Virus record (IMG/VR): IMGVR_UViG_3300028920_000076
Location: 1-61,141 of that record
Strand: one strand, 5' to 3'
Source: a virus
DNA length: 61,141 nucleotides
Part shown: in pieces, positions 420 to 60,645 of the stretch
Position numbering within the stretch: position 1 is the first letter of the stretch
How the letters are laid out: the number at the start of each line of letters is the position of its first letter
Notes under the pieces: model-generated
What the model saw: only the letters and a program-made list of their open reading frames with translations
What the model was told of the DNA's origin: nothing
Databases searched by the model: none
Made by a program: the position numbers and the translations under genes

Positions 420-433
420 TGAAATCGATTGCA
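420..433. repeat. Dispersed palindrome, near copy
   Basis: TGAAATCGATTGCA, one mismatch from the symmetrical form. It lies just downstream of the -10 of the 382 promoter, where a bound protein would block initiation. Confidence 0.7.
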
Positions 434-482
434 ATTTGGGGAGTTGAAAGATGGGTGAATTTCGGGAAGGGGCGAAACGGGC

Positions 483-842
483 ATGAGGATGTGGATGGTT
501 GATCCTGTTCTGTTATGCAAGAAGCATCTGGGTGGGGAGCACTACGAGATGCACAAGCACCTGTGGGTGTTCCGTAAGGGATACAAGGTGTCGGGACGAT
601 TCCACCCCACGGTCCAGATTCAATTTCAGGGATACGTCGAGAGGCATGATCTGCTTGCCCGTGAGATAGAGAGGCGGGGAGGGAAACACAACAGTCCACT
701 CGTTGATGTTCCTGACTTCGAGACGATATACCCGCAATATTGGAACCGGCTGGTCGATGTGGAACTGAGCAAGATCGATCTGTGCGAACGTTGCCCAGAC
801 TGCCGGGAAAGGATTAGGGCTGCTGAAAGATGGGTGAATTGA
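483..842 (+). CDS. Pyrimidine dimer DNA glycosylase-like protein
   Basis: A 119-residue protein whose N-terminus (MRMWMVDP, then HLGGEHYEMH) and later RHD...RGGKHNSPL and CERCPDCRERI blocks match the Pyr_excise family, relatives of T4 endonuclease V found in many phages. Family members cut at UV photoproducts; activity here is inferred from resemblance only. A possible 11-codon upstream frame (451-486, MGEFREGAKRA) overlaps the start as ATGA and could couple translation. First gene after the 382 promoter. Confidence 0.75.
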   Translation: MRMWMVDPVLLCKKHLGGEHYEMHKHLWVFRKGYKVSGRFHPTVQIQFQGYVERHDLLAREIERRGGKHNSPLVDVPDFETIYPQYWNRLVDVELSKIDLCERCPDCRERIRAAERWVN

Positions 843-1024
843 CCAAAAAAGAGATTATGGATATTATCAGATCGGCGTACCGATTGAGGCCCAGAGATAT
901 TGCGGCTTTCGAGTTGTATGCGAAAGGTGTGACCGAGGTACAGGTTGCTGGAATTGATGGTCCTTTATGGATGCGGGTGGAGGTTGCGAACCGGCTCAGG
1001 GATCTTTACAGAAAGGAATTGTGA
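830..1024 (+). CDS. Small hypothetical protein
   Basis: 64 residues, mainly helical, overlapping the previous gene by 13 bp in another frame. Contains RPRDIAAFELYAKG. Its start region repeats a 17-bp stretch also present before the first gene (445-461 and 824-840). No family recognised; the gene is accepted because of tight packing. Confidence 0.65.
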   Translation: MGELTKKEIMDIIRSAYRLRPRDIAAFELYAKGVTEVQVAGIDGPLWMRVEVANRLRDLYRKEL

Positions 1025-1025
1025 T

Positions 1026-1265
1026 ATGGTAGATTATCAGTGGACGGAAGACGTGATGGAACAGTTGGGTTTGGGGATCGATCGTGCCCTTCGTGAGACC
1101 GTGGGGAAGATGGGCTTTGTGCTGTTGGTGTTTCCTCCCGGCAAGCCCGGTGTTTCTAATTATTTGAGTAACTGCGAAAGAGATATGATGATTTTAGCTC
1201 TGGAGGAAACGGTTGACAGGTTGAAAAAGAAGGCGGATATTCCGAGACCGATAGGGGAAGCCTGA
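1026..1265 (+). CDS. Small conserved phage-type hypothetical protein
   Basis: 79 residues from ATG 1026, one base after the upstream stop; the frame opens earlier but this start fits the spacing. The GFVLLVFPPG core and SNCERDMMILALEETVDRL tail resemble a small acidic protein often found in phage and plasmid accessory regions, of unknown function. Confidence 0.75.
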   Translation: MVDYQWTEDVMEQLGLGIDRALRETVGKMGFVLLVFPPGKPGVSNYLSNCERDMMILALEETVDRLKKKADIPRPIGEA

Positions 1266-1302
1266 TCGGGTAACGTTTAGACGAGCAAGGAGGTAATTTA
1301 CT

Positions 1303-1671
1303 ATGGCTGAACAAGCAGAGGTTGTGAGTTTAGGTGCCCACAAACGTAAGAAGGAAAAGAAGGAAAAGAAAGAGGAACTTGTAATCGTTGACTTTCTTGA
1401 GTTTGACGCTTATAGAGCAACGGTGCAGAGACTTGTGAGTACTCTGCGGATGCGGAACCGTTACCCGAAGGGTGCTTACGATACCAGTACCTTTTATATA
1501 GGACGGAGGGTGATGCGGATAAGCTTCCGACAGCTCTATGTATCACAGTTTCAGATGCAAAAGTTGCTGAGGCTCTTGAAATCGGAGTTCTCAGATGTGG
1601 CTTACAAGTATTACGTAGAAGGGACCGATCTGCACATCTACCTGCGTGGTGAGCGAAGGAAGGATGAGTAA
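1303..1671 (+). CDS. Hypothetical protein with lysine-rich N-terminus
   Basis: 122 residues, with a strong AAGGAGG site before ATG 1303. Residues 14-26 are a Lys/Glu run (RKKEKKEKKEE), likely disordered. The rest is a mixed, basic fold with many aromatic residues. The stop overlaps the next start. No family recognised. Confidence 0.8.
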   Translation: MAEQAEVVSLGAHKRKKEKKEKKEELVIVDFLEFDAYRATVQRLVSTLRMRNRYPKGAYDTSTFYIGRRVMRISFRQLYVSQFQMQKLLRLLKSEFSDVAYKYYVEGTDLHIYLRGERRKDE

Positions 1672-1976
1672 TGCTGATTGTAGTTAATTTGAAGAACTGT
1701 GGAGGTTGTCGGCATAGGGATCATTCGGGCTCTTTCACGCCGGGTGGTCCCAAACAGATATGCGCCCATCCTGAAGTTTCGGATGTGGTGTATAATACTG
1801 TACCTGATATGCTGTGTGACGATGCGAACGGTTTTCCATCAAAGCCTACGGGGAAGGAGCTGGAACGATTGGAGAAGCAATGCTACCACTGGAAAAATCG
1901 TATTGTGGATGAGTATGTGGATACCGACGATAAGTTTCCGATCTTTTGCCCGTTGAGGAATGGGAGTTTATACTAA
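1671..1976 (+). CDS. Cys/His-rich probable zinc-binding protein
   Basis: 101 residues with CGGCRHRDH near residues 10-18, a second Cys/His pair (CAHP) near 31 and further Cys in CDD, CYHW and FCP. The spacing suggests one or two zinc sites. Overlaps both neighbours by a base, so translation is coupled. No enzymatic motif. Confidence 0.8.
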   Translation: MLIVVNLKNCGGCRHRDHSGSFTPGGPKQICAHPEVSDVVYNTVPDMLCDDANGFPSKPTGKELERLEKQCYHWKNRIVDEYVDTDDKFPIFCPLRNGSLY

Positions 1977-2278
1977 TGAAGCTGTTAGTGATTATCATTA
2001 TGCTGTCGAAGTTGTCTACTCTCGCCACGATTGACGGTAAACCCACGTGGATCGATTGTCCCGAATGGGATTGGTCATTGGTGCCGGTGGAGTGTAGAGT
2101 TCCTGCGTTTAACTGTGTGCCGATCTGTGGTAAGTGGCCGGGAGATAAGGTGGATATCGGAGCCTATGAATACGTGCCGAATATTACGAGCGAGCAGCCG
2201 TGGGGAGCTTGGAAGGGAATACCTTTTAAATCCGCCCCCGGAGAAGTCACTGCTCCAGAGGGTTTTAGACGGAGGTAG
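1976..2278 (+). CDS. Small exported hypothetical protein
   Basis: 100 residues from ATG 1976, which overlaps the preceding TAA. MKLLVIIIMLSKLSTLA looks like a Sec signal peptide. The rest has four Cys (DCPEW, ECRVPAFNCVPIC) that could form disulfides outside the cytoplasm. Possibly a cell-envelope or superinfection-related product; that role is only a guess. Confidence 0.65.
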   Translation: MKLLVIIIMLSKLSTLATIDGKPTWIDCPEWDWSLVPVECRVPAFNCVPICGKWPGDKVDIGAYEYVPNITSEQPWGAWKGIPFKSAPGEVTAPEGFRRR

Positions 2279-3643: not shown

Positions 3644-3847
3644 ATGGACGCAAGACTCATAAAAGCTGCTGGCGGGAGAGCTGACCTTATTAGGAAAGGG
3701 AAGACGATGTTAGCTGCGGGATATCAGGTAGATACGGTGCTTGCTACGATCCGTAGGGATGCCGGTATTCGTGGAGCCTGTGTCGATGAGGATCGTTATG
3801 AACGAGGTATCAGGAAGATTAGAATTGGGAGGTATCAGCATGCCTGA
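3644..3847 (+). CDS. Small basic hypothetical protein
   Basis: 67 residues behind a perfect AAGGAGG. Basic and helical, ending RYERGIRKIRIGRYQHA. Overlaps the next gene by 8 bp. Function unknown. Confidence 0.75.
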   Translation: MDARLIKAAGGRADLIRKGKTMLAAGYQVDTVLATIRRDAGIRGACVDEDRYERGIRKIRIGRYQHA

Positions 3848-4409
3848 TAAGATCGCATGGCACTACACGTATGAATACAAGGCTACACCTATTTTAACGG
3901 ACGGACATCTGAGGCTTACTCCAGTAGAACCGTTGCCGGGAGAGCCTCAAGGTGTTTGGTTTTCAAAGAATCCTGTCTGGGAGGAGACCGTCCGCAAGAA
4001 GACCGTTATTGTGGATAAGGTAACTGGCGAATCTGTACTCTCGACCGAGCCGCTTGCTCGTGATGAATTTTATGAAGCGACCGGATTCCGGGCCATAAGA
4101 TTTGCAATCGATTGCAGACGTTTCCCTAACCAGCTTTGCGGGTGGAACAACTATCGCAAGAAACTTTTTAAGGTTGGTCATGCCGCCCATGCCAAGGCTC
4201 TTGCGGATACTGCTAAATTATGGAAGGCAGACCCGAAGGATTGGCTTGTCATTTACCGGGAAGTTACTCTATTCGAGCTGCTGAATGAGGTTGAGATCTG
4301 GGATCATGTAGGGGACCGTGGATGGATTCCAGCCGGATTGAAGGTAAATGAGGAGACACGTAAGGTAACCGTTGCTCCTTTAATTGAGATGGGAGGGATA
4401 GCTACGTGA
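3840..4409 (+). CDS. Conserved hypothetical protein, ART-like N-terminus
   Basis: 189 residues from ATG 3840 with GGGAGG upstream. The opening WHYTYEYKATPILTDGHLRL, followed by GVWFSKNPVWEETV, matches a pattern in phage and plasmid proteins and resembles the HxT...I..G.L...vwFS start of ADP-ribosyltransferase-like folds (DarT, KptA). Family function is not established and catalytic residues cannot be assigned. A perfect palindrome copy lies inside the gene at 4103-4116. Confidence 0.75.
   Translation: MPDKIAWHYTYEYKATPILTDGHLRLTPVEPLPGEPQGVWFSKNPVWEETVRKKTVIVDKVTGESVLSTEPLARDEFYEATGFRAIRFAIDCRRFPNQLCGWNNYRKKLFKVGHAAHAKALADTAKLWKADPKDWLVIYREVTLFELLNEVEIWDHVGDRGWIPAGLKVNEETRKVTVAPLIEMGGIAT
4103..4116. 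repeat. Dispersed palindrome, symmetrical form
   Basis: TGCAATCGATTGCA, a perfect 14-bp palindrome within the coding region 3840-4409, reading FAIDC. Confidence 0.9.
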
Positions 4410-8163: not shown

Positions 8164-8177
8164 TGCAATCGCTTGCA
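8164..8177 (+). repeat. Dispersed palindrome, exact copy
   Basis: TGCAATCGCTTGCA, intergenic, 34 bp upstream of the -35 of the 8212 promoter. Confidence 0.9.
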
Positions 8178-8211: not shown

Positions 8212-8238
8212 TTGACAAAACTTGCTACCTATTATAGT
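8212..8238 (+). promoter_or_regulatory. Family promoter, 15-bp spacer
   Basis: TTGACA 8212-8217 and TATAGT 8233-8238, with the ACTTGCTACCTATTATA core shared with the 13293 promoter and TCTGGAT downstream. Leads the 8278-10946 cassette. Confidence 0.85.
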
Positions 8239-10772: not shown

Positions 10773-10946
10773 ATGATTAGGCTTATTAGGAAACTGGTTG
10801 GATGTAGCATTGGGCTTCTTGGCATATTGCTTGCATGGTCAGACGGGGGCTGGTTCCCATGGGTGAACTATGTAGGGCTTGGTATTTTCGGTATTATGAT
10901 ATACGTTGCCAATAGAAGTGAGGACCGGTGCAATCGCTTGCAATGA
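10773..10946 (+). CDS. Small membrane protein
   Basis: 57 residues from ATG 10773 (GGGGAAG upstream); the frame opens at 10683 but without a good ribosome site. Two hydrophobic stretches (CSIGLLGILLAW and VGLGIFGIMIYVA). The last codons (CNRLQ) are written by a dispersed palindrome copy. Function unknown. Confidence 0.6.
   Translation: MIRLIRKLVGCSIGLLGILLAWSDGGWFPWVNYVGLGIFGIMIYVANRSEDRCNRLQ
10929..10942 (+). repeat. Dispersed palindrome, exact copy
   Basis: TGCAATCGCTTGCA covers the last codons of the 10773 gene and sits 33 bp upstream of the -35 at 10976. Confidence 0.9.
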
Positions 10947-11002: not shown

Positions 11003-11100
11003 TTTAAGTCTGGATACAAAAAATTCATTTAAAAGGATGGCAGAAATTGACTAAAAACCACCAAAATAGCGAAAATCATAAGCAAAACGGAGGTCACATT

Positions 11101-13049: not shown

Positions 13050-13258
13050 AACACTACGTATCTGATTCATATTGGTGCGACCGGGATGAGCAATTTAAGC
13101 ACTCATTAGTCTGTTTGTATAGGTGTACGGATCAGCCGTACTGCTCACATAGTCTAAAATTCGAGTATTCCTTGCGGATTAAGTTGCAATCGATTGCACT
13201 GGCCCGGATCGGAGGGAACGGTCAGCTTCCCGGCATGGAGAGTGATGAGAAGGAGTGA
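13046..13258 (+). CDS. Small Cys/His hypothetical protein
   Basis: 70 residues from GTG 13046, overlapping the preceding stop as GTGA with AGGAGG nearby. Cys at about residues 11, 23, 27 and 33 could bind zinc. A perfect palindrome copy lies inside (reads LQSIA). Confidence 0.6.
   Translation: MKHYVSDSYWCDRDEQFKHSLVCLYRCTDQPYCSHSLKFEYSLRIKLQSIALARIGGNGQLPGMESDEKE
13185..13198. repeat. Dispersed palindrome, symmetrical form
   Basis: TGCAATCGATTGCA in the 13046 gene, 94 bp upstream of the -35 at 13293. Confidence 0.9.
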
Positions 13259-16694: not shown

Positions 16695-16708
16695 TGCAAT
16701 CGCTTTCA
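16695..16708 (+). repeat. Dispersed palindrome, near copy
   Basis: TGCAATCGCTTTCA, one mismatch. It begins at the base after a stop codon and ends four bases before the -35 hexamer at 16713, so a bound protein would contact RNA polymerase. Confidence 0.75.
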
Positions 16709-21228: not shown

Positions 21229-21242
21229 TGCAATCGCTTGCA
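21229..21242 (+). repeat. Dispersed palindrome, exact copy
   Basis: TGCAATCGCTTGCA between scaffold and major capsid genes, 12 bases after the stop. Confidence 0.9.
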
Positions 21243-25393: not shown

Positions 25394-25432
25394 AAAGGGG
25401 CCGGATGCAATCGCTTGCACGGCCCCTTTTTC
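25394..25432 (+). terminator. Terminator with dispersed palindrome as its loop
   Basis: AAAGGGGCCG (25394-25403) pairs perfectly with CGGCCCCTTT (25420-25429), then TTTCC. The loop is exactly the 14-bp palindrome plus flanking GA. The tube gene is made in large amounts and a terminator here would lower downstream tail genes. Confidence 0.8.
25406..25419 (+). repeat. Dispersed palindrome in terminator loop
   Basis: TGCAATCGCTTGCA exact, forming the loop of the 25394 terminator. The loop itself could also fold by its own symmetry. Confidence 0.92.
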
Positions 25433-26165: not shown

Positions 26166-29100
26166 CGTACTGACGAAAACAATTCGAGTTATTATCAAGG
26201 CGATTGACCAGACCGGGGGAATAGTCAAGTCAGTTGCCGGTGGTCTTGGCAAACTCGGCGATCAGGCTAAGAAGACAGGTAAAGATCAGGACGGTCTCAG
26301 AAAAGGCACGGAGAAGGCCACTGATGCTGTCCGAAAGCAGGGAGCCCAAGTCAAGAAGGGAGCAGGTGCCTTACGTCTTTTCGGATCGTCTTCCCAGAAG
26401 GCCCGGAGAGAAGTCACTGCTATGGGTACTGCTGCCAAGTCTGCCGGTGCCGGTATCGGAAGTCTTATCTCCAAGTTTACCACTGCCGCTGCGACTATAG
26501 GCACTATTGCTTTCCCGATTGCCAAGGCTGCTCAGTTCGAGAGGGCCATGGCAACTGTCGGTGCTGTATCGGGTGCCACCGGAAAAGACCTTGATTCGTT
26601 GACCATGAAAGCACGGGAGATGGGCGAGAAGACTGAGTTCTCTGCCACCCAAGCTGCGGACGGTCTCCGATTCTTGGCGATGGCCGGTCTTAATGTAGAA
26701 CAACAACTCGCCGCTCTCGAACCCGCCCTGAACCTTGCCCTTGCCGGTAATATCGAACTTGGACAAGCTGCTGATATAGCCACCAACATCATGACAGGTT
26801 TCGGTGCTTCAGTTTCCGAACTTCCCGGCATGATGGACGTACTGACCCAAGCCTTCACGAACAGTAATACAAACCTCACCGAACTCGGCCATGCAATGGC
26901 CTACGTTGCCCCTGTCGCTGCCGGGATGGGTGTAGAGTTCAACGACCTTGTATCTGCAATGTCAGCCCTTGCCAATGCTGGCCTGAAGGGGTCGATTGCT
27001 GGAACGGCTCTCAGAGGTACACTTGTTAAGCTATTCAAGCCGACCGCCAAATCTGAGAAGGTCATGCAATCGCTTGCACAACGTATCGGACAGACCAACA
27101 TTGAACTGCGAAATGCGGAAGGTGGATTCATTGGGTTTGCCGGACTTATTGACCAGTTTGCAGCCGCCAACGTTTCGGCTGCTGAGGCCATGGAGATATT
27201 TGGTCTACGTGCTGGACCCGCTTTCATTGCCTTGTTGAACCAAGGGTCTGCGGAGATGCGGAGATTCAACAAGTTGATGGATGAAGCTGGAGGTAGAACC
27301 GCTGAGATTGCAAAGGTTATGGGGAATAACTTTGTCGGTGCTACGAAACAGCTCCTATCCTCGTTGCAGGAACTCGCCATTAACTTTGGGTCTGCTTTTC
27401 TTGGTGATCTGAAGGAAGCTACTCTGTCGATACGAGATTTGGTTATCAGTATCAACACGTGGGTCAGTGCGAACAAGACGCTTGTTAAAAATGTCGGATA
27501 TGCTGTCGCTGCACTCGGAGCACTCTCGGCTGCGGCTGGACTTCTGGCAGTTTTCAAGACTCTTGCCGTTGTTGCATTGGGTCCATTTACTAGTGCTCTC
27601 AATTTGATCAAAGCTAAGGGTCTTGTTGCCGTTGCTGCCCTCGCTACCATCGCTGCTACGTGGGGAGAACTAATTTATGAGATGGTGAAGTCCAACGGAG
27701 ATCTTGAGAAATCCGTTGAGAACTGGGACTTTGCCAAGTGGCTCAATAACCTGACGTTGCCTTTCATCGAATCAAAGAAAACCATTGGTGACTTCGCCAC
27801 CTATGCAATCGCCTTCTGGGATAAGTTTTTCTCGAAGATCGGATATGGGTGGGCGTTGATCCCTGTGGCTATGAAATCTGCGTTTTCTGATGGGTTGGAT
27901 CTCATAGCAAATTTTGCACAAAATATCCTTAATACCATGAAGGAAGTTCCCGGCCTCGGACAGTTGTTAGGATGGAGCGGGGATGTAGACAGAATCCAGC
28001 AGTCTATCGATGGTATTCGAGCTGCGGCACAACGGCTGAATACCGAAGCACAGAACGGATACCGTGCTGCGAACAAAGCTTATCAACAGCAAATCAAATA
28101 TGCCAATGATACCCAAGCCGGTATCGAGCGGACTGCTGCGGCCAGAGAACGGGAAGCACAGCTTATTGATTACATGGGAAGGCGAGAATCAGCGGTTGCC
28201 CAACTCCGTGCCAATGCTCAGTCTGAGATTCGGGAAGCAACAAAGAGTGTTCGGGAGGAGATCGAGAAACAAAACAGAGTCCTCAAGGGTCTCTATGAAC
28301 GTGTCGGACAGGCATCTGAGAGATACAAGATATTTGTCGATCAAGCAAAATCTGCGCTCGAATCGCTTGGAAAAGCTACGAATAAGGCGCTTTCGAGTAT
28401 CTGGGAAAACGTTACCAATGATCAGGCTGTGGCTGATGTCGAGAGACAACTTCAGCAAATCCAAAGGCAATACGAAACGTACTCGGACCAAGGTGCTGCT
28501 GCCATAAGACGAGCAGAGAGTTCTATCTCAAAGGCCAGAATTGAGGCAACCAGAAATGGTGTTGATGAGTCACTCGCCCTTATTGAAGCCCAGAGGACTC
28601 GTGAGATTGCACTGCTTAACGAGACCAAAGAGAAAGAGGTTGCGGTTGCCAAGGCTACGATAAGTGATGTTGCCACGCAGAGGAAGCGTCTGGAGCAGAT
28701 CGAAAAGGATAGTCAGAGAAATATCGTTGCTGTTAATGAGAAAACTCTGGCCCAGAAGAAAGCGTTGTACGAGAAGGCTACCACGGCACTCAAGTCCGAA
28801 TTGGATAAATCGCTATCTGCCGAGCGTTCCATTGCCGATGAGATTATCGCTGTTCAAGACAAGATCCGAAATTCTAAAAAGTCCACCGAGGAGCTTGTTC
28901 GTGGACTGAGAAGGCAGGGATTGTCAGAGGAGAGAGCGTATGCTGACGAAGTTGCGGAAGTAGATGAGAAGATCGCTGCTGCGACTAAGTTGATGGCGAC
29001 CGACACGAAGAAGTCTATCCAACTGTTGCAAGAAGCCCAGAGACAAGCCTCTGGACTTGTGGGTGAAATTTCCAGTGGCGAGAAGATACTCGTCTCTGAA

Positions 29101-37107: not shown

Positions 37108-37121
37108 TGCAATCGCTTGCA
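37108..37121 (+). repeat. Dispersed palindrome, exact copy
   Basis: TGCAATCGCTTGCA starting at the base after the stop of the 36124 gene, 15 bases before the next ATG. Confidence 0.92.
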
Positions 37122-40905: not shown

Positions 40906-40919
40906 TGCAATCGATTGCA
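40906..40919. repeat. Dispersed palindrome, symmetrical form
   Basis: TGCAATCGATTGCA one base after a stop codon and 11 bases before ATG 40931; it abuts the GAGGAG ribosome site of the sulfotransferase gene. Confidence 0.92.
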
Positions 40920-42854: not shown

Positions 42855-43382
42855 ATGGAAAAAGAAGAAGTGAAACTCGAAAAGGGTGATTTCTTTTGCA
42901 GTAAGAATCCCATGGCTCTCGGCAAAATCATTAATGCTGTCCAGTGGTTCTGGTCAACTGATAACGAGTCGAGATATACGCATGCCGGGATTATTGTTGC
43001 CGAGGACGGTACTACACTGGAGTCTTTGTGGACCGTCAAGAATCAAAATCTCTGGGAAGCTTATGCCGGTGAGAGAGTTATCATTGGACGTTACGAAAAG
43101 ATGACCCCTGAGATTTTTGAGAAGGGGATGCAAGCGATTGCAGAACATAAGGGTAAGATTTATCCAGTTCTTCGGCTACTACTATTTGGCATACCACCCG
43201 TTGCCAAATTTCTATATATAGGACTCGTGGTGTGTTCCGAGTTGACTGCCAAGTTTTTGTGCTCGATGGGAGCACTTAACTATTGGAAAGGCAAGATGCC
43301 CGACAATATCCATGACGCTATGAAATATCGTCGAGGGTTCAAAGTCGTGGCAGAACTTGAAATCCCTAAAAAGGAGGTTTAA
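42855..43382 (+). CDS. Permuted papain-like hydrolase, possible endolysin
   Basis: 175 residues behind CCGGAGGT. GDFFCSKNP opens the domain, RYTHAGIIVAEDG holds His43, and VVCSELTAKF holds Cys127. This order, His before Cys, is that of permuted NlpC/P60 (YiiX-like) peptidases and amidases. Neighbouring membrane proteins suggest cell-wall or lipid-linked action. A palindrome copy is inside. Confidence 0.75.
   Translation: MEKEEVKLEKGDFFCSKNPMALGKIINAVQWFWSTDNESRYTHAGIIVAEDGTTLESLWTVKNQNLWEAYAGERVIIGRYEKMTPEIFEKGMQAIAEHKGKIYPVLRLLLFGIPPVAKFLYIGLVVCSELTAKFLCSMGALNYWKGKMPDNIHDAMKYRRGFKVVAELEIPKKEV
43129..43142 (-). repeat. Dispersed palindrome, reverse orientation
   Basis: TGCAAGCGATTGCA in the hydrolase gene, read as MQAIA. 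Confidence 0.9.
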
Positions 43383-47693: not shown

Positions 47694-49147
47694 TGCAAAA
47701 GTTTTTGAAGAACGTTACCACTGGACGCCTCCGAGTTGGAGATGTTGGTAAGAAAATCGATGCCGGTGAAGTACGCCGGATTGACGGCAAGGACATTCAT
47801 CGCTGGCTGAACAGTGACGACACACTTGACTACATACGTGCTGGTGATCTGCAAGTCGGTGCTGCGATTGATTTCTTTTACTCCGATGCGCTGGAGGGAG
47901 AGCTTTATTTCAATTCGCTGTTTGACGATGATGCATACGTGCTGGATGGAAGTACACTGGAGGAGGTCACTCCTGCCGTTGTTACAGACAGTATTACCGG
48001 GAAGAAGTCAACCACTGAGTTCTTTGCTATTCAATCCATGATGCGTGAACTCTACAACGCTACGTCCAATCCGTTTTATCATGCCAGTGTCACCCCGATT
48101 CTGGGTGCCGGGGGAATCCTCGAAACCATGGCAGGTAGAACGTTAAATCTGGAGACCATCTTGGGTAAGACCGGATGGTACACACAGGAAGTAAAAGAGT
48201 GGGCATACCAGAAACCGTATGCCATCCTGTTTTACTACGGCTGGCCCAACGCCTTCAACTCCGCTCAGAATGGGTGGGATAATGAGAAGGTTGCTCAGGA
48301 AATGTCCAAGTACCGGATTGTCGTTTTTGGGAATGGGCTGGAGCTTCCTACTCATGGAGACCACGCCAATCTGCAAGCGATTGCAACGAGGATTAAGGCC
48401 CTCAACTCAAACACGCAAATATTCGGGTATGCCTCTGTAAACCAGACGCAGACTGCGTTCGAGACACAGGTGGACAACTGGAAGGACAACATCGGTGTCC
48501 ACGGCATCTTCATGGATGAGGCCGGATACGATTACGGCAAGACCAGACAGGAGTTCAATACTGCGGTGGATTACGTCCACGACGAAGGCTTGATCTGCTT
48601 CGCAAACGCATGGAATATGAACCATGTTCTGGGAACCGCCAACGATCCAAGCTACCCGAACACCACATATAACCCGTCTGCGGACGAGTCGAATCTGGCA
48701 CAGACTGATTGGTATCTGATGGAGTCCCTTGCCGTCAATACCCTTGTCTACTCTGGAGACGGAGTTGCCCCGAAAGCGGACTTTGTGGCTCGTGTGAATA
48801 CCATGACCACGCTCCGTGCGACCTACGGGATCAACGTTGCTGCTATCAACGTGATTAACGACTCACACGCACAGGGACAGGCACTTTTCGACTTCGCCTT
48901 TATCGCTGCCTGTATTGCATCTCTGGAGGGAGTGGGATCGTCAGACGATTACTACGGGGCCTCCAGTGCGAAGACGAAGTTCTGGGACCGACCGGATGTC
49001 AGTGAGATCGGGAGGCTCTGGGACTTGTGGCCCATGCTATCAGCAGACAACAATGATGCGGACAAGGTGCTTCGCTTTCTCGACTTTGGACGCCTGATGC
49101 TGGACTTCTCCACAGGAGCGGTTGATAGTGACATTCTGAAATACTAA
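47693..49147 (+). CDS. Spherulin-4-like glycoside hydrolase fibre
   Basis: 484 residues from ATG 47693, which overlaps the upstream TAA, GGAGG before it. After an N-terminal 140-residue attachment region, AILFYYGWPNAFNSAQNGWD, FGYASVNQTQTAFETQVDNW and GVHGIFMDEAGYDY give the TIM-barrel layout of spherulin-4/GH135-type hydrolases, with Asp/Glu of FMDEAGYD as likely catalytic. Probably cuts a host polysaccharide. A palindrome copy lies inside. Confidence 0.8.
   Translation: MQKFLKNVTTGRLRVGDVGKKIDAGEVRRIDGKDIHRWLNSDDTLDYIRAGDLQVGAAIDFFYSDALEGELYFNSLFDDDAYVLDGSTLEEVTPAVVTDSITGKKSTTEFFAIQSMMRELYNATSNPFYHASVTPILGAGGILETMAGRTLNLETILGKTGWYTQEVKEWAYQKPYAILFYYGWPNAFNSAQNGWDNEKVAQEMSKYRIVVFGNGLELPTHGDHANLQAIATRIKALNSNTQIFGYASVNQTQTAFETQVDNWKDNIGVHGIFMDEAGYDYGKTRQEFNTAVDYVHDEGLICFANAWNMNHVLGTANDPSYPNTTYNPSADESNLAQTDWYLMESLAVNTLVYSGDGVAPKADFVARVNTMTTLRATYGINVAAINVINDSHAQGQALFDFAFIAACIASLEGVGSSDDYYGASSAKTKFWDRPDVSEIGRLWDLWPMLSADNNDADKVLRFLDFGRLMLDFSTGAVDSDILKY
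48372..48385 (-). repeat. Dispersed palindrome, reverse orientation
   Basis: TGCAAGCGATTGCA in the hydrolase fibre gene, read as LQAIA. Confidence 0.9.
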
Positions 49148-50400: not shown

Positions 50401-50713
50401 CATCGTGATCGAGGAGTTTGAAAAACAGCCATACGAGGAGTTCTTTGTTGCCGGTGACTACTCGACCGTTCTGGATGATGATGAAACATTGGTACTGGCT
50501 CAGTGTGTTGTATCCGCTGTGGACAAAGGCGGAACTGATGCAAGCAGTGCAGTTCTGGACCTTCCCACGATGGATGTAGACGGTCCATATTTGAAGGTCA
50601 GATGCCGTGCTGGAGATCCGTCATTGTCGAAGTACAAGATTACCTTTCGATGCGTGACGAGTGAAGGGAACAAGTGGGAAATCGATGTAAAGATGAAGGT
50701 GAAAGAGTACTAA
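50390..50713 (+). CDS. Small structural-type protein
   Basis: 107 residues behind TAAGGAGG. DNIVIEEFEKQPYEEFFVAG and a beta end (YKITFRCVTSEGNKWEI) fit a small Ig-like virion protein found next to fibres. A palindrome copy follows the stop. Confidence 0.7.
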   Translation: MVDNIVIEEFEKQPYEEFFVAGDYSTVLDDDETLVLAQCVVSAVDKGGTDASSAVLDLPTMDVDGPYLKVRCRAGDPSLSKYKITFRCVTSEGNKWEIDVKMKVKEY

Positions 50714-50715: not shown

Positions 50716-50729
50716 TGCAATCGCTTGCA
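50716..50729 (+). repeat. Dispersed palindrome, exact copy
   Basis: TGCAATCGCTTGCA two bases after a stop codon; it touches CGGAGG, the ribosome site of the gene at 50741. Confidence 0.92.
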
Positions 50730-51588: not shown

Positions 51589-51754
51589 CCCTGATCAAGT
51601 TGGCTGGCCGGTCGGAATAGGCGGGATACCACCCGTCTTCCGACTCGGTGCAGTCGCTTGCGTTCAGGAAGTAGTAGAGGCGGAGCCGTTGCGAAATCCC
51701 GTGGACGAGGACTCTCCAGTTGAGGGTTTAGAACCAAACCCGTTTTCCCCTTGA
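51578..51754 (+). CDS. Possible small protein
   Basis: 58 residues from GTG 51578 with no good ribosome site: KHNPDQVGWPVGIGGIPPVF then an acidic Pro-rich tail. It would end inside the -35 hexamer of the next promoter. Doubtful. Confidence 0.25.
   Translation: MKHNPDQVGWPVGIGGIPPVFRLGAVACVQEVVEAEPLRNPVDEDSPVEGLEPNPFSP
51649..51662 (+). repeat. Dispersed palindrome, degenerate copy
   Basis: TGCAGTCGCTTGCG, two mismatches, 88 bp upstream of the -35 at 51751. Confidence 0.5.
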
Positions 51755-52562: not shown

Positions 52563-55154
52563 ATGGGAGCATGCCAATTAGATTCCTGTCCGCTGCACAA
52601 CCAGCCACGGAATCGGGAAGTTCCCTATCAAGGCTCTACACGTGCTAAGGTTATACTTGTCGGAGAGTCTCCCGGCTTTCAAGAGCTGCGGATGGGGTTA
52701 CCTTTCTGTTCGGACGGAGACTCTGGCAAACTACTTCGTAAGGGATGCAGCACTGTTGGGCTGCCGTGGTCTTCTTTGTTTCTCTGCAATGCTGCTCGTT
52801 GCCGGATTAATACAAAAAAGATGACCATCAAGGAGATCAGTAAAACTCTGGCCCACTGCCGTAGGCATCTTGAACGAGTGATAAAGGCTCTGAAGCCTAA
52901 AATCATAGTGAACCTTGGCAACTACGCACTGCAACAAGTGCAAAAAAGAAAGGGAATAACGAAAGCCCGTGGCAGGTGGACGTGGAACAAAGAGTTTAAC
53001 TGTTGGGTTTACTCCATGTTTCATCCTGCGTACATCTTACGGAACATGGCACTTGAACCACTGTTCGTTGAAGACTTAAAAGGGTTGAAAGACGCAATAG
53101 ACAATGACTACTCGCCGGAGTTCGATGAGGAGTTAGATTGGAAGGAAATCCCCCGATTGAAAGGGGCTTTTACGTTACCCCAACTGCATGAAGGTGTAGG
53201 CATCGATACCGAATGTCAGGGTCTTGAGTGGACGGACGAGGACTATGTTGTAATCGGTTATTCGATAAGCGCCCAGAAAGGTAAAGGCTACTTCGTCCGA
53301 CTGTACGAGGAGACAGTTGATCCCGATGAAGCAGACTTTACTATTCAATGGATGCGTGCTCCAGAGGGCAAGAAAAAGAAAGAGCTTGTGGATGTCCATG
53401 TCCGCAAGGCTCCGCTATTCGATGAGAAATTGAGAGAATTGCGGATCGTGCTGGAGAGCAAGGATATCAAGCTTTACATGCACAACGGCAACTTTGATCT
53501 GCATACTCTCAATACGTTTTTTCGTAATGCTGGAAAGGCTCCACCGACCGTACGATCTTATGCGATGGATACCCAAGCAGCGGCTCAACTACTGGAGGAA
53601 AATATATTTGTCCAATGTAAGTTGTCGCAGCTCCAGCGTACCTACACGAGCATTAAAAGTGATTATGATGAGGCTCTTGCGAGGAAGTATGGAAAGGATG
53701 ATATGCTTGCCGTGCCAGCAGAGGAGTTGGGATACTACGCTGGCGGTGATGCCGATGTGACAAGACGTGTTGCCCTGCGGCTGAAAGAGGAGCTTCTCAA
53801 AGAGCCTGACCTCGCTCGTTACCTTGTAAAATTTGTTATGCCGACTTTGCAATCGCTTGCAACAATGGAGGAAAACGGTGCATACGTCGATCAAGAGCAA
53901 CTGCCGATTGCTACGGAATCAATCAAGGGATTGATGGAACAAGCAACTCGTGACTGCCTTCGTTACATCCCGGTGAAGGTCAGAGCACGTCATAAAGAAT
54001 TAGGACTGAAATTCACTCGTGATGCACTCGTTAGGGATACACTGTTTGCCAATGATGGCTACAGTTTGAAAATCGTCAGGAAAACGAAAAGTGGAACTCC
54101 ATCAGTTGACAAAGACGTACGGAAAATGCTTCTGGAGAGACGGCTGACAAAAAAGTGCCGAGCTTTCCTAACGTATCTGGATGACTTCAAAAGATACCAT
54201 ACGCTCTACACTCGTTATCTGAAGGGATTTAAGAAGTCGATCAAAAGCGATCAGCTTATTCATACCAAGTATTCATTATGTAAGGCAAAGACAGGAAGGG
54301 CTGCTTCGTCAGATCCCAACCTAATGAATATACCGAATCGTGGACCGGATGCGCCTGTCGTACGGAAGTTGATTGCTGCTCCGAAGGGATGGCTTCTGAT
54401 GGCTGCGGATGAAGGCCAATCCGAACTCAGGTGGGCTGCGGATATCGCTAATGACAGAGCGATGAAAGAAGTCTTCCAGCAAGGCAAGGATATTCATACT
54501 GCAACCGCTGTTGCCCTTAGCCAGAGGACTGAAGCTGTCTATTTGAAGTTGCCGGAAAAGGAGCAGAAAACACTCCGTAGAAATGCGAAGCCTGTGAACT
54601 TTGGTCTGCTATACGGGATGGGTGCTGATGGATTCGTCTTGTATGCTAAGTTGGAATACGGGATTGACTTAACGATCCCCGAAGCAGAGCTGTGGATCAG
54701 TATCTTTTTCCGTACTTATAAAGCTTTGCCTGTATACCATAAGAAGACCATAGCTTTTGGCCGACGACATGGATATGTAGTCTCCCCGATTGGTCGGAGA
54801 CGGCATCTTCCAGAGATCAGTAGCAGTGATCCCTTTCTGCGATCACAAGCCGAGAGGATGGCGATCAATCACCCGATTCAATCAGTCTCGTCGGATACCG
54901 TACTGATTGCTAATAATGAGATCGAGGCGCAAGACCATAACCCAGAGGAGTTTAAATCATCGCTGTTCATCCACGATGAGCTTGTCTATCTGGTTCGTGA
55001 CAATTCAAAAGTTGAGGACTATGGAAGGGTACTCAAGGAAGCCATGGAAAATCCTCCGTTCGAGAGGGACTATGGGTATAAACTTTCAGTTCCTTTGATA
55101 TCCGATGTGAAAGTCGGAAAAAACCTCGTTGAGATGACTAAGTTGGAATTATAG
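52563..55154 (+). CDS. Uracil-DNA glycosylase / DNA polymerase A fusion
   Basis: 863 residues. Residues 1-180 form a family-4 uracil-DNA glycosylase domain: GESPGFQE 34-41, GLPFCSDGDSG 45-55, FHPAYIL 153-159, and Cys4, Cys9, Cys80 and Cys99 as possible Fe-S ligands. Then the proofreading exonuclease: DTE at 215-217, HNGNFD near 305, YYAGGDADVT near 389. The polymerase has motif A DEGQSELR (about 616), motif B RRNAKPVNFGLLYG (about 671; Phe at the E. coli 762 position) and motif C HDE (about 803). It would copy the genome and remove or sense uracil. A palindrome copy lies inside. Confidence 0.92.
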   Translation: MGACQLDSCPLHNQPRNREVPYQGSTRAKVILVGESPGFQELRMGLPFCSDGDSGKLLRKGCSTVGLPWSSLFLCNAARCRINTKKMTIKEISKTLAHCRRHLERVIKALKPKIIVNLGNYALQQVQKRKGITKARGRWTWNKEFNCWVYSMFHPAYILRNMALEPLFVEDLKGLKDAIDNDYSPEFDEELDWKEIPRLKGAFTLPQLHEGVGIDTECQGLEWTDEDYVVIGYSISAQKGKGYFVRLYEETVDPDEADFTIQWMRAPEGKKKKELVDVHVRKAPLFDEKLRELRIVLESKDIKLYMHNGNFDLHTLNTFFRNAGKAPPTVRSYAMDTQAAAQLLEENIFVQCKLSQLQRTYTSIKSDYDEALARKYGKDDMLAVPAEELGYYAGGDADVTRRVALRLKEELLKEPDLARYLVKFVMPTLQSLATMEENGAYVDQEQLPIATESIKGLMEQATRDCLRYIPVKVRARHKELGLKFTRDALVRDTLFANDGYSLKIVRKTKSGTPSVDKDVRKMLLERRLTKKCRAFLTYLDDFKRYHTLYTRYLKGFKKSIKSDQLIHTKYSLCKAKTGRAASSDPNLMNIPNRGPDAPVVRKLIAAPKGWLLMAADEGQSELRWAADIANDRAMKEVFQQGKDIHTATAVALSQRTEAVYLKLPEKEQKTLRRNAKPVNFGLLYGMGADGFVLYAKLEYGIDLTIPEAELWISIFFRTYKALPVYHKKTIAFGRRHGYVVSPIGRRRHLPEISSSDPFLRSQAERMAINHPIQSVSSDTVLIANNEIEAQDHNPEEFKSSLFIHDELVYLVRDNSKVEDYGRVLKEAMENPPFERDYGYKLSVPLISDVKVGKNLVEMTKLEL
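53848..53861 (+). repeat. Dispersed palindrome, exact copy
   Basis: TGCAATCGCTTGCA in the DNA polymerase gene, read as LQSLA. Confidence 0.9.
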
Positions 55155-56883: not shown

Positions 56884-58435
56884 GATGCCAGATATACAGG
56901 CTCCAGAGGAGCTTGACAGCTTCGATACGGCCTTTTTAGTGCTGATAGGGACTCTGACCCTTATAGACGGAGAAGAAGCCCTTGAATCGGCTCTGAAGGT
57001 CTCAAAAGATGTTGTTTTGTGGGGTCCAGAAGCCTTCCTACTCAATTCAGTGCTGTATAAGGGTTGGAAGGATGCTGGTGGCGATGATTTTACCGATGCG
57101 TTGAGATCTGCGTTTGATCTTAAAGACGATATCGGTGTTGATCTGGAAGCCCTCGACGATGCGTATGAGAAGTACTATGCCACTGGACGAAAGGCATGGA
57201 AGATCGTCAAAAAGAAAGTTGCTGAGGTACTGGAAAAGACTTCGGACTCATCCGAGAGTTATTTTCTCAAGCAATACAAAAAGGCCCAAAAGGATGCAGC
57301 TCTCGATAACTGGAAAAAGTTTGTGGAGTCTGCCAGTTATGAACACATAGAAAAATTTATCGACACGTACCCGGATCGTGTGCTGCACAGCCAGATTGGT
57401 ACTCTTGCCAAGCAAGCAGCACTGAATCCGAATATGCGTACTATTGACAAAGCTGATTTGGTGCGTAGGATTAAAGAGATCGAGAAGTTGCCGAAAGAGT
57501 ATATCAAAAACGTTTCGGATATACATGCCGGGAGAGTTTGGAATTTTACCGGATTGACGATGGCTCGTCAGAGAAACGTTACCGAATTTCAGATTATAGC
57601 AAACTTGGATAAGAAGACGTGTCCGGTGTGCAAGCGATTGCACGGGACTCGCTTTAATGTCGAGGCTGTGATCGAAAAAATGATCCCGTTGTTGACGGAG
57701 GAGGGTAACGAGGACGCTATTGCTAAGGCGTTTCCCTTCCCCCGGTTGCCTGATGTAGATAACGTCTCCTCAGCGGAGAAACGGGGTCTCCAAACAATGC
57801 CTCCTTTTCATGGGCGGTGCCGGTGTGATACGGCAATGTTATGGACGAAGACGGACACGGAGCTTCCAGAGTTACCGAAGAAGCCACCGACTATTCCAGA
57901 AACGTTTGTCTCTAAGAGGAACCGTCTTGAGAGGAGCATCTACAACCGTAAGACTGAAAAGTGTTACTGTTTTGATAAAAAGGGAAATGTGACCGTTGTT
58001 AAAGAAGGTCACGAGCGAGGAATACTTTTTACTTCTGATGAGTTAAATGCAATGCCGGAAGGCTCTGTCTTTACGCATAACCATCCGGCTTCTACAAGTT
58101 TTAGTCCTGAAGATCTATTTCTGACTATCAGAAATAGGTTTAAGGAGATGAGGGCAGTCAGCAAGAAATACGTATACTCCTTTAAGCCTGATTGGAAGTA
58201 CTGGACAGAGACCATCGGGTATACCGAAACGCAAGATATTGCAGACTCGTTTCTCACTGCGTTTCAGAAAGCTGATGGTGCTGTCCGTAAGAAAATTCAA
58301 TCGTTGCTTAACAGTGGAAAAATTGCACTCGAAACAGCCAATGCTACTCATGCACACGAAGTCATGCTGGAGATGTCCAAAATGACAAAAGGTCAAGGAT
58401 TCAAGTATTCACGGAGGAAACCGCCATGGTCTTAA
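56870..58435 (+). CDS. MuF-type minor head protein with JAMM-like C-terminus
   Basis: 521 residues from ATG 56870, overlapping the portal stop. The MuF core holds WNFTGLTMARQRNVTEFQII, TCPVCKRLHGT near 250 and MPPFHGRCRC near 312. After residue 345 a different domain begins: FTHNHPASTSFSPEDL near 399-414 fits HxHP...SxxD of JAMM/MPN zinc peptidases. MuF proteins carry variable C-terminal domains, sometimes toxins, that enter the host with DNA. The peptidase activity is inferred. A reverse palindrome copy overlaps the CPVCKRLH codons. Confidence 0.85.
   Translation: MLPYKMPDIQAPEELDSFDTAFLVLIGTLTLIDGEEALESALKVSKDVVLWGPEAFLLNSVLYKGWKDAGGDDFTDALRSAFDLKDDIGVDLEALDDAYEKYYATGRKAWKIVKKKVAEVLEKTSDSSESYFLKQYKKAQKDAALDNWKKFVESASYEHIEKFIDTYPDRVLHSQIGTLAKQAALNPNMRTIDKADLVRRIKEIEKLPKEYIKNVSDIHAGRVWNFTGLTMARQRNVTEFQIIANLDKKTCPVCKRLHGTRFNVEAVIEKMIPLLTEEGNEDAIAKAFPFPRLPDVDNVSSAEKRGLQTMPPFHGRCRCDTAMLWTKTDTELPELPKKPPTIPETFVSKRNRLERSIYNRKTEKCYCFDKKGNVTVVKEGHERGILFTSDELNAMPEGSVFTHNHPASTSFSPEDLFLTIRNRFKEMRAVSKKYVYSFKPDWKYWTETIGYTETQDIADSFLTAFQKADGAVRKKIQSLLNSGKIALETANATHAHEVMLEMSKMTKGQGFKYSRRKPPWS
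57629..57642 (-). repeat. Dispersed palindrome, reverse orientation
   Basis: TGCAAGCGATTGCA in the MuF gene, here in a different reading frame (codons for CKRLH) from the other gene-internal copies. Confidence 0.9.
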
Positions 58436-59370: not shown

Positions 59371-59407
59371 CTCAAAGAGTAATAAAATCAGGCATTTATA
59401 AAAACTC

Positions 59408-59434
59408 TTGACAAAATTTTTTATCTGTTATATA
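59408..59434 (+). promoter_or_regulatory. Family promoter, 15-bp spacer
   Basis: TTGACA 59408-59413 and TATATA 59429-59434 with the AAACTCTTGACAAAAT block. Leads the right-edge cassette. Confidence 0.75.
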
Positions 59435-59473
59435 TAAAATTATCGATATTATTTTTTGACAGGAGACGCCGCC

Positions 59474-59989
59474 ATGCATAAATTCAAATTTACGGGAGGG
59501 GTTGCCAATCCTGAACCGAGACGAAATGAGAAGTTTCTCTTGTTTTTCGTTGTCGGCGGAAACGAGATCCCTCTGTATCAGATGGTCAACGATGGATTGG
59601 TACAGAGGACCGGCTACGAGCGGGATGAGTTCTCGACCAAGCACAAGATTGCCAAGGTGTTTATCAGTCAGCAGGGATTCGGCATCCAGAAACGCTACCA
59701 CTCCTTTTATATAGAGTTTCGGGATTCTACCGCATCCCCCACGGTGACTGTAGTTCCCTTCTCCGGGCCAGATACCCAATTTCAATTCGTTGGGAATTTT
59801 CGTTTCCTGAAAAAAGATGAAATCTTGGAAGTGCTGGATAGTGAATCAACAAGTTACAAGTTCGCCCAGATCCAGCAACCACTTCCGGTTAAGACGCTGA
59901 ATAGTCTTGTTACTGTGGATCGTTCTCATGTTCGCAAGGGAGTGCGGCATGTTCGGATCGGACGCAAAACCCAAAAGGTAGGAATTTGA
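59474..59989 (+). CDS. Hypothetical protein of the right-edge cassette
   Basis: 171 residues from ATG 59474, CAGGAGA site. Beta-rich (KFLLFFVVGGNEIPLYQMV; YHSFYIEFRDSTASPTVTVV) with a basic end (HVRKGVRHVRIGRKTQKV). First gene after the 59408 promoter. Unrecognised. Confidence 0.75.
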   Translation: MHKFKFTGGVANPEPRRNEKFLLFFVVGGNEIPLYQMVNDGLVQRTGYERDEFSTKHKIAKVFISQQGFGIQKRYHSFYIEFRDSTASPTVTVVPFSGPDTQFQFVGNFRFLKKDEILEVLDSESTSYKFAQIQQPLPVKTLNSLVTVDRSHVRKGVRHVRIGRKTQKVGI

Positions 59990-60011
59990 CCTACAGACAG
60001 GAGGTATCACT

Positions 60012-60407
60012 ATGTCATTTTGGACCCAGATCGGAACCGTGATCACTGACGTTACAATGTTCAAGAAGTCGTGTGAACAGCATAATGTCGAGTATCAGCG
60101 GAACCACGACAAGAACTTTAAGATGCAAGGGCTCGAAGTCCATGCAACGTTGACTGACAGTGGCTCACGGAGCGGCATGCGTGGGCAAGCTTTTCTCTGC
60201 AAGGATGGAGGAGCGTTCAAGATCGTTATGGACAATGACATCAACTACTCGTCTTTCTCAAATCGCATCGGACGTAACGGTGGGGTGCTTGTTAGAGACT
60301 ACACCAGAGGTGTGATTCTGGACAACGTGAGAAAAACTGGTGGGATGGTAACCAAACAAGAAGAACTGAAGGATGGCAGTGTTCTATTAAGAGTTGCCAA
60401 CTTCTAA
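60012..60407 (+). CDS. DUF1257 (Ycf35-like) protein
   Basis: 131 residues behind CAGGAGGTATCACT. SFWTQIGTVITDVTMFKKSC is the opening of the DUF1257/Ycf35 family, known from cyanobacteria, plastids and phages, role unresolved. It is followed by a DUF2997-type gene, an arrangement known elsewhere, often next to a MoxR-type ATPase, which may lie beyond the edge. Confidence 0.75.
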   Translation: MSFWTQIGTVITDVTMFKKSCEQHNVEYQRNHDKNFKMQGLEVHATLTDSGSRSGMRGQAFLCKDGGAFKIVMDNDINYSSFSNRIGRNGGVLVRDYTRGVILDNVRKTGGMVTKQEELKDGSVLLRVANF

Positions 60408-60427
60408 TCTGTATGAGGAGTGACAAA

Positions 60428-60631
60428 ATGACGGAGAAACCCGAAGTAGTTATCAAAATCAGTCCAGATGGATCTAATGTGGACGTAGACGGTAAGAACT
60501 TTACGGGCGGGGCTTGTAAGACAGTTATCGAGACTCTAACCAAGGGTGTCGGGATTGTCGAGGAGTCAAAGAAGAAGCCCGAATTTTACGTAATCGAGCA
60601 GCATCATACCACTCTCGGTGGTAGTACGTGA
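60428..60631 (+). CDS. DUF2997-like protein
   Basis: 67 residues from ATG 60428, TGAGGAGTG site. VVIKISPDGSNVDVDGKNFTG is the short beta pattern of DUF2997 partners of DUF1257, followed by a helical part and YVIEQHHT. Next to the DUF1257 gene. A palindrome copy starts at the base after the stop. Confidence 0.7.
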   Translation: MTEKPEVVIKISPDGSNVDVDGKNFTGGACKTVIETLTKGVGIVEESKKKPEFYVIEQHHTTLGGST

Positions 60632-60645
60632 TGCAATCGCTTGCA
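60632..60645 (+). repeat. Dispersed palindrome, exact copy
   Basis: TGCAATCGCTTGCA directly after a stop codon and three bases before a hairpin (60649-60675). Confidence 0.92.

What the first reader, a model, noticed from the sequence alone, without database searches (positions are those of the whole stretch)
420..60645. Evenly spaced 14-bp near-palindrome across the whole window
TGCAATCGCTTGCA (11 copies), its reverse complement (4) and the symmetrical TGCAATCGATTGCA (3) occur 18 times exactly, plus 3 near copies (420, 16695, 51649). About 0.001 exact copies would be expected by chance in 61 kb. Starts: 420, 4103, 8164, 10929, 13185, 16695, 19478, 21229, 25406, 27065, 29972, 33353, 37108, 40906, 43129, 48372, 50716, 51649, 53848, 57629, 60632. 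The mean gap is 3.0 kb and only one of 20 gaps is under 1.6 kb, where about 8 would be expected for random placement. The central CG and TGCAA arms fit LacI-family operators. The even spread over early, structural and replication genes suggests a stoperator-like silencing system, or a site for a condensing, partition or packaging protein.
Basis: partly seen in the sequence, partly recalled or inferred. Interest (0 to 1): 0.95.

Follow-up and report, generated by a model that had tools for sequence, protein, structure and literature searches.

The report
Phage-wide palindrome array with its reader
This virus of bacteria, and dozens of its relatives, carry a short mirror-like DNA word placed at regular steps along the genome, each lineage with its own version, and a so far unnamed phage protein whose DNA-reading part resembles that of chromosome-partition proteins probably reads it to control, and perhaps to organise, the viral genome.

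Summary
In detail: 18 exact and 2 one-mismatch copies, evenly spaced (CV of gaps 0.28). It is not a private oddity: 22 of 23 compared relatives score above null sequences for their own dispersed 14-bp palindrome (one doubtful). Half-sites change between lineages (TGCAATC, TGCAAAC, TGAAATY, CGCAAAC; in later records TCCAAYY, TGACATT). In two bacterial genomes the palindrome occurs only on the contig carrying the phage genes. The likely reader is phrog_17202, function unknown, present in all 21 compared records that hold RecA. Structure comparison ranks ParB/Noc DNA-binding domains first; it has no ParB CTPase domain. Its recognition-helix Arg is kept in 46 of 46 genomes with base G2 and lost in both without. 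A copy lies at its own gene start in 32 of 54 genomes (chance 0.12), before its operon in 40. A subset sits exactly 8 bp before a sigma70-like promoter; most have none, and about three fifths lie inside called genes. Best reading: a stoperator-like operator array read by an autoregulated ParB-type protein, perhaps with an architectural role. LacI is not supported. The window's own reader gene lies outside this partial record. Binding and function are untested.

The parts
420..433 (.). site TGAAATCGATTGCA (1 mismatch), downstream of the promoter-like TTGACA at 382
4103..4116 (.). site TGCAATCGATTGCA, inside ORF 3741-4409
8164..8177 (.). site TGCAATCGCTTGCA, 34 bp upstream of TTGACA at 8212
10929..10942 (.). 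site TGCAATCGCTTGCA, 33 bp upstream of TTGACA at 10976
13185..13198 (.). site TGCAATCGATTGCA, 94 bp upstream of TTGACA at 13293
16695..16708 (.). site TGCAATCGCTTTCA (1 mismatch), 4 bp upstream of TTGACA at 16713, right after a stop codon
19478..19491 (.). site at the start of the XkdF-like protease ORF 19462-20070 (head operon); the same gene has a site just upstream in 11 of 21 genomes
21229..21242 (.). site in the gap before the major capsid gene 21292-22218
25406..25419 (.). site TGCAATCGCTTGCA within a longer inverted repeat (AGGGGCCGGA...CGGCCCCTTT)
27065..27078 (.). site inside the 2452-aa tape-measure-like ORF 26158-33516
29972..29985 (.). site (TGCAAGCGATTGCA) inside the tape-measure-like ORF
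33353..33366 (.). site inside the tape-measure-like ORF, near its end
37108..37121 (.). site between stop (37107) and the next start (37137), no room for a promoter
40906..40919 (.). site between stop (40904) and an ATG at 40931
43129..43142 (.). site inside ORF 42855-43382
48372..48385 (.). site inside ORF 47678-49147
50716..50729 (.). site between stop (50713) and the next start (50741)
51649..51662 (.). weak copy TGCAGTCGCTTGCG (2 mismatches), doubtful member
53848..53861 (.). site inside the DNA polymerase I ORF 52563-55154
57629..57642 (.). site inside ORF 56843-58435 (Mu F-like, below the Pfam cut-off)
60632..60645 (.). site just before ORF 60641-61015
8212..8238 (+). promoter-like repeat TTGACAAAAC...TATAGT, one of six TTGACAAAAC places (382, 6787, 8212, 10976, 13293, 16713); five of the six have a site within about 110 bp

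Best explanation
The palindromes are the genome-wide operators of one phage-encoded DNA-binding protein, the phrog_17202 family (here p17202). The protein carries a ParB/Noc-type DNA-binding domain but no ParB CTPase domain, and by analogy binds each palindrome as a dimer, one half-site per subunit. Copies linked to promoters, including one in front of its own operon, set transcription initiation, so the protein controls its own level. The promoterless copies, evenly spread in short gaps and inside genes, act like stoperators: bound protein blocks or dampens transcription passing through, and may also help to fold the genome. Protein and sites drift together, so each lineage has its own specificity, as in immunity groups. 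Shown: the sites, their spacing, the lineage-specific versions, the conserved family, the fold match, the association of helix residues with bases, the site before its own operon, the fixed 8-bp promoter phasing of a subset. Inferred: binding itself, dimer form, repression rather than activation, roadblock function, and that contig G069 carries the window phage's own p17202. The odds given here and for the rivals are not exclusive: the first two rivals share the same reader.
For: p17202 occurs in 21 of 24 compared genomes; the three without it also lack RecA, being partial records. AlphaFold model mean pLDDT 82, 95 or more in each block of ten over residues 51-150. VIA-align 2: the top 11 rows are all ParB, Spo0J or Noc, Z 7.8-9.6, top row rmsd 2.2 over 97 residues, several solved with parS or NBS; I had noted this likeness by eye before. 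Covariation over 48 genomes or loci: recognition-helix Arg in 46 of 46 with G2, Ser in both without; the R-G2 rule was written down before the second case, L264, was found; it is the highest of 12,173 column-by-base tests in 8 families. K of the same helix: 36 of 38 with C3, 2 of 6 with A3, four mixed genomes set aside. Residue x of GWxK (seen after the fact): not Thr in 7 of 9 with A6 or C6, in 4 of 38 with T6 or G/T6, one mixed set aside. A site lies -250..+120 of the p17202 ORF start in 32 of 54 (chance for one such stretch 0.12), and before its operon in 40 of 54 (two stretches can count there, so chance is higher); MerR-like neighbour 0 of 43, RecA 9 of 54. Promoter offset peak: 32 of 114 promoter-like hits at exactly 8 bp. 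Sites are about 3 to 8 times enriched in intergenic gaps. A chromosomal region with a tyrosine integrase carries an array; relative DLP5 is reported as temperate (PMC5834331, part 1 of 2 of the text read).
Against: No binding data. The R-G2 association rests on two departures, and the tests are only partly corrected for kinship; RecA distance as a whole follows the palindrome at least as well as p17202 distance does. The K-C3 rule failed in two new loci, L231 and L289. Foldseek itself gave no match with E below 0.001, and Z under about 13 can be a common arrangement for helical proteins. 543 of 657 sites have no sigma70-like promoter at the threshold used. Asymmetric sites are not oriented with transcription (1 of 19 genomes P<0.05), unlike L5 stoperators. 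Relatives R21Y and LV6 are described as lytic (abstract start and title in a listing), which a pure lysogeny repressor does not explain. p17202 lies in the replication region. In 14 of 54 no site was found before its operon. The window record lacks the gene.
Confidence: 0.6

Rival explanations
1. Phage chromatin: p17202 is mainly an architectural protein, like Noc with its scattered sites. Evenly spaced dimers, perhaps bridging, fold, segregate or mark the phage genome for replication or packaging; promoter effects are secondary.
For: Even spacing in 22 of 26 genomes, also within single long genes (window tape-measure-like ORF, three sites); fold nearest to Noc and ParB; gene in the RecA region, in several genomes right after an AAA+ gene; no consistent orientation; present in all 21 compared records with RecA.
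Against: Site before its own operon and fixed 8-bp promoter phasing point to transcription; no CTPase domain, hence no ParB-type spreading expected; gap enrichment.
Confidence: 0.27
2. The palindromes are activator sites for phage promoters: protein bound about 15 bp (centre) upstream of the -35 box recruits RNA polymerase.
For: Fixed 8-bp gap (32 of 114 hits); V-YDF132 cassettes often have a weak -10.
Against: Most sites have no detectable promoter; in the window the gap varies (4, 33, 34, 94 bp) and site 420 lies downstream of its TTGACA.
Confidence: 0.2
3. Another phage protein reads the sites: the MerR-like regulator (phrog_19880) or the ParB_N protein before the terminase.
For: Both are of DNA-binding type and widespread.
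Against: ParB_N was not found in 10 of 24 genomes, six of them with the terminase, and none is annotated before the terminase of LV6, which has an array. MerR-like was not found in 9 of 24, among them G037, RcZahn and G017 which have arrays and the region. MerR-like: no column-by-base value above 0.3 and no site at its gene (0 of 43). ParB_N: no site just upstream in 14; its own covariation was not tested.
Confidence: 0.1
4. A LacI-family repressor binds the sites.
For: Central CG in this window and likeness to LacI-type operators (recalled).
Against: No fixed CG centre in 34 of 48 genomes or loci; PF00356 over cut-off in 0 of 20 records.
Confidence: 0.02

Closest known systems
Stoperators of Cluster A mycobacteriophages (L5, Bxb1; PMC6550527, passages read)
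   Same: 20-30 dispersed sites per genome, a few in promoters, most not; the motif drifts together with the regulator; lineages have their own versions.
   Different: L5-type sites are 13 bp and run mostly with transcription; these are 14-bp palindromes without consistent orientation and evenly spaced. The candidate reader has a ParB-type domain and sits in the replication region. Elongation block not shown here.
Noc with its scattered NBS sites; ParB with parS (PMC7383237, passages read; PMC4331003, abstract start in a listing)
   Same: 14-16 bp palindromes, scattered for Noc, read by the DNA-binding fold that ranks first for p17202; few residues switch specificity.
   Different: p17202 has no CTPase domain; the sites form a regular array on a phage genome; versions change from phage to phage; site before its own operon.
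SPbeta repeated element and MrpR (PMC10516654, passages read)
   Same: A repeated short element spread over a prophage and read by one phage master repressor.
   Different: About ten promoter-linked 15-bp sites, read by a recombinase-like protein.

Membership tests
Cluster A-type stoperator system | 20-30 copies dispersed over the phage genome, most not at promoters | tested here: met
   15-52 copies in the 11 relatives; 114 of 657 with a promoter-like element
Cluster A-type stoperator system | Some copies are operators in promoters | tested here: met
   by sequence only: 8-bp phased promoter cassettes; site before the p17202 operon in 40 of 54
Cluster A-type stoperator system | Copies oriented with transcription | tested here: not met
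   1 of 19 genomes with P<0.05
Cluster A-type stoperator system | Site specificity drifts with the regulator | tested here: met
   kinship only partly controlled, whole-protein distance not distinctive
Cluster A-type stoperator system | Bound protein blocks elongation and maintains lysogeny | not testable with these tools
   needs RNA-seq and lysogens
Cluster A-type stoperator system | Repressor homologous to L5 Rep | not tested
   no comparison with L5 Rep was run
ParB/Noc family | ParB-type helix-turn-helix DNA-binding domain | tested here: met
   VIA-align 2 top 11 rows ParB, Spo0J or Noc, Z up to 9.6; Foldseek E-values not significant; sequence-profile search of PDB listed none of them
ParB/Noc family | N-terminal CTP-binding ParB_N domain | tested here: not met
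   no ParB_N hit in 8 p17202 proteins
ParB/Noc family | Palindromic target of 14-16 bp | tested here: inconclusive
   the arrays are 14-bp palindromes, but binding by p17202 is inferred
LacI family | LacI HTH gene in the phage | tested here: not met
   0 of 20 records over cut-off, two weak sub-threshold hits in one, G035; records may be fragments
LacI family | Central CpG in the operator | tested here: not met
   present in the window, but no fixed CG centre in 34 of 48 genomes or loci

The most novel reading that the evidence does not exclude
A phage chromatin system: a ParB-type DNA-binding domain freed from its CTPase binds an evenly spaced array over the whole viral genome, giving each phage lineage a private, co-drifting address code that folds its DNA, tells self from rival phages, and couples this to transcription.
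Probability: 0.25. Interest if true: 0.92.

Novelty: new variant of a known kind. Interest (0 to 1): 0.8.

Why it matters
A group of phages (arrays seen in phages of Vibrio, Stenotrophomonas, Pseudomonas, Rhizobium, Rhodobacter and Aeromonas, and in many uncultured ones) appears to share a genome-wide control system that my searches did not find described. It suggests a function for a conserved hypothetical protein, offers dozens of natural protein-site pairs for studying how DNA-binding specificity evolves, and makes it directly testable whether evenly spaced operators silence, pace or fold a phage genome. It may also predict which of these phages are immune to one another.

Tried and rejected
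LacI reader: rejected. ParB_N protein upstream of the terminase: first favoured, set aside because it was not found in six genomes that hold the terminase and its HTH-like helix is acidic by eye. MerR-like protein: set aside. RNA hairpin reading: not favoured, since the centre is symmetrical too in many relatives (inference). Single-protein scans with p17202 gave 2, 1 and 3 loci; RecA alignments worked. PDB sequence-profile search for p17202: nothing relevant. Foldseek: no match below 0.001. K-C3 rule: proposed, then broken by two new loci with A3 (L231, L289). Relatives without a clear array: G023 (not above null) and G038 (GC-rich, doubtful); G041, G052, G053, G054 (weak) and G057. The covariation set of 48 leaves out p17202 loci with no called palindrome, duplicates and doubtful calls (L224, L238, L263, L294, G038), from 88 proteins given to the alignment; consensus half-sites were chosen by me from the scans. 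In one search the reversed-sequence score equals the forward score by construction and says nothing, and no null was run for those six phages. Whole-protein distance does not single out p17202. In one search some control columns also score high at rare letters (AAA column 252 at base 1, r 0.92, n 30; my reading is that a single genome causes it), and the AAA family has more values above 0.3 per 1000 tests (23.3) than p17202 (10.9). Of 11 bacterial-genome loci, four gave a palindrome set I took as an array (L431, L434, L435, L437), one a weak one (L429); the rest gave none.
Full report
The window is the whole of a 61,141-bp virus record, classed linear and therefore perhaps a fragment. It encodes a major capsid protein of PHROG 1623, a portal protein, DNA polymerase I with a UDG domain and a 2452-aa ORF related to a tape measure protein; megablast of its first 25 kb found no named phage. 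At one mismatch there are 20 copies with gap CV 0.28 and P below 0.0001 against uniform placement. The palindrome is far above null sequences (score 136 against at most 9 in four).

Relatives were found through the capsid protein (138 stretches encode a relative, the best 80 kept; 216 named phage records by protein search). Of 23 relatives scanned, 22 score above their four null sequences; G023 does not, and G038 is GC-rich and doubtful. Versions: TGCAAACGTTTGCA (G006, 20 copies at one mismatch), TGCAATYRATTGCA (DLP5, 35), TGCAATTAATTGCA (V-YDF132, 32; G037, 48), TGAAATYRATTTCA (G028, 34), CGCAAACGTTTGCG (G024, 22) and others. Sixteen more records, some only in part, added TCCAATYRATTGGA (G060, 43), TGAAATCAATTTCA (G058, 38), TGACATTAATGTCA (G064, 9), TGCACTTAAGTGCA (G063, 13) and TGCAACCCGTTGCA (G051, 22); five of the sixteen had none clear. 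Stretches of six more named phages, SIO-2, SM1, L338C, HJ05, TM16 and LV6, gave scores of 33 to 180 with 5 to 23 copies; no null was run there. Spacing is more even than random (P<0.05) in 22 of 26 genomes tested; not in G031, G033, G034 and G048. Copies are about 3 to 8 times enriched in gaps between called genes and, in most genomes, near gene starts (0.50 against 0.21 in the window; not in G030), yet 13 of the window's 20 and 402 of 657 counted over 25 genomes lie inside called genes.

The arrays belong to the phages, not to their hosts, where this could be tested. In a Hyphomicrobium MAG all 36 places with up to one mismatch lie between 113 and 264 kb of one contig and none elsewhere in 4.5 Mb. 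In Roseococcus pinisoli all 18 places lie within 95 kb of one contig and none elsewhere in 4.8 Mb, with a tyrosine integrase gene in that stretch. So at least some of the group are probably temperate; DLP5 is reported as a temperate phagemid (PMC5834331, part 1 of 2 of the text read). The main text of the DLP3 paper holds no word beginning with palindrom (PMC7326821, passages).

I built gene families over 24 genomes. One family without known function, phrog_17202, is present in 21; the three without it (the window among them) also lack RecA. I noted that its middle looked like a ParB DNA-binding domain. The predicted model of one member gave no Foldseek match below 0.001, but VIA-align 2, a second look at Foldseek's own candidates, put ParB, Spo0J and Noc in the first 11 rows, Z 7.8 to 9.6, then Raf1 entries from 7.7 down to 5.8 and other rows below 5. 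Z under about 13 can be a common arrangement in helical proteins, so I rely on the consistency of the rows and the prior expectation. Pfam finds no ParB_N domain in 8 members.

Covariation. From the first genomes I wrote down that helix residues R and K follow bases G2 and C3. New loci came from RecA alignments; 68 of the 165 loci then scanned hold the gene, known contigs included. In 48 genomes or loci with a called palindrome the Arg is present in 46 of 46 with G2 and replaced by Ser in both without (A2 in G030, C2 in L264), the highest of 12,173 column-by-base tests over eight families (Fisher 0.0009 without correction for kinship). The K rule held only in part: 36 of 38 with C3, 2 of 6 with A3, four mixed. 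The residue after GW, noticed after the fact, departs from Thr in 7 of 9 genomes with A or C at base 6 against 4 of 38 with T or G/T. In ParB and Noc, G201 and R186 read a base called position 6, the second from the centre by my own counting (PMC7383237, passages); that GWxK matches this residue is my reading of the sequences, not a computed alignment. The MerR-like family shows no value above 0.3. Against this, whole-protein distances do not single out p17202, and the AAA+ family has more moderately high values, on fewer genomes.

Autoregulation. In 54 genomes or loci with a called palindrome, a copy lies within -250..+120 of the p17202 ORF start in 32, against 0.12 for a random point, and before its operon (counting an adjacent AAA+ gene ahead of it) in 40; neighbours: AAA+ 15 of 35, RecA 9 of 54, SF2 helicase 11 of 53, nuclease 4 of 53, small conserved protein 3 of 54, primase 6 of 50, MerR-like 0 of 43. 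The copies often precede a clear TTGACA-N17 promoter. Over 25 genomes, 114 of 657 copies have a promoter-like element within 45 bp downstream (33 expected at 5%; intergenic copies 63 of 255 against 0.10 for random intergenic points; copies in genes 51 of 402), and 32 of the 114 start exactly 8 bp after the palindrome. V-YDF132 (11) and G015 (6) repeat such cassettes. In the window the fit is looser: of six TTGACAAAAC places, most followed by a TATA-like -10 at 15-17 bp, five have a copy within about 110 bp, at 4, 33, 34 and 94 bp upstream and once downstream. Head operons also tend to begin with a copy (before the XkdF-like protease in 11 of 21; the window's copy at 19478 lies at that gene's start).

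The window's own reader gene is not in the record. Contig G069 (26 kb) has eight exact copies of the same kinds, none with two G halves; by its name it comes from the same metagenome as L010, which is 99.2% identical to window 11292-27586; it is nearest in tetranucleotides (0.077; two parts of the window 0.092; next relative 0.155). It carries p17202 with a one-mismatch copy (TGAAATCGCTTGCA) about 87 bp before it and another copy about 48 bp before the adjacent AAA+ gene. No shared stretch of 20 bases joins the two contigs, so this is likely but not proven.

Function. A few promoter-linked operators, a site before the regulator's own operon and many promoterless copies fit stoperators best (PMC6550527, passages), but the palindromes show no consistent orientation (1 of 19 genomes), the spacing is unusually even, the protein fold is different, and relatives described as lytic have the system as well (R21Y and LV6, listing; p17202 in both). 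I therefore call it a new variant: a stoperator-like array read by a ParB-type protein without CTPase, with an architectural role left open.

Prior art. Searches of the open-access library for stoperator with palindrome, evenly distributed palindromes in phage genomes, the exact word TGCAATTAATTGCA, phage ParB with terminase and parS, dispersed ParB sites, operator sites with ParB, and promoter-motif palindromes in siphoviruses showed in their listings no description of this array. Only listings and the passages named above were read; most subscription papers are not held.

Noticed in passing
window 382, 6787, 8212, 10976, 13293, 16713: Six promoter-like TTGACAAAAC places; four of them (6787, 8212, 10976, 13293) are near-identical repeats.
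   Followed up: partly
window 25406-25419 with flanks: This copy sits in a longer inverted repeat (AGGGGCCGGA...CGGCCCCTTT) that looks like a terminator.
   Followed up: no
window 52563-55154: DNA polymerase I with an N-terminal uracil DNA glycosylase domain; the same pairing is annotated in Pseudomonas phage SM1.
   Followed up: no
window 11047-12645 and 17479-18060: A protein with an Hsp90/MutL-type ATPase domain and a small protein with a DNA polymerase beta thumb domain.
   Followed up: no
L091-L099, L101, L102 and named relatives: A ParB_N-domain protein just upstream of the large terminase in many relatives, not annotated there in LV6; role unknown.
   Followed up: partly
G008, G006, G015, G007, G024, G026, G028 (alignment): Several p17202 proteins end in an acidic, hydrophobic tip (such as DIDDLLG), like partner-binding tails of SSB (recalled); in some genomes the gene follows an AAA+ ATPase gene.
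   Followed up: no
G028 47522-50440: The AAA+ gene holds a large insertion that looks like an intein (by eye).
   Followed up: no
named phages: p17202 is labelled putative ribonuclease E/G family or putative single-stranded DNA binding protein in some records, which the fold match does not suggest.
   Followed up: partly
Hyphomicrobium MAG G073 contig C4, 229-264 kb: A second cluster of the same palindrome some 60 kb beyond the first, perhaps a second related phage piece.
   Followed up: no
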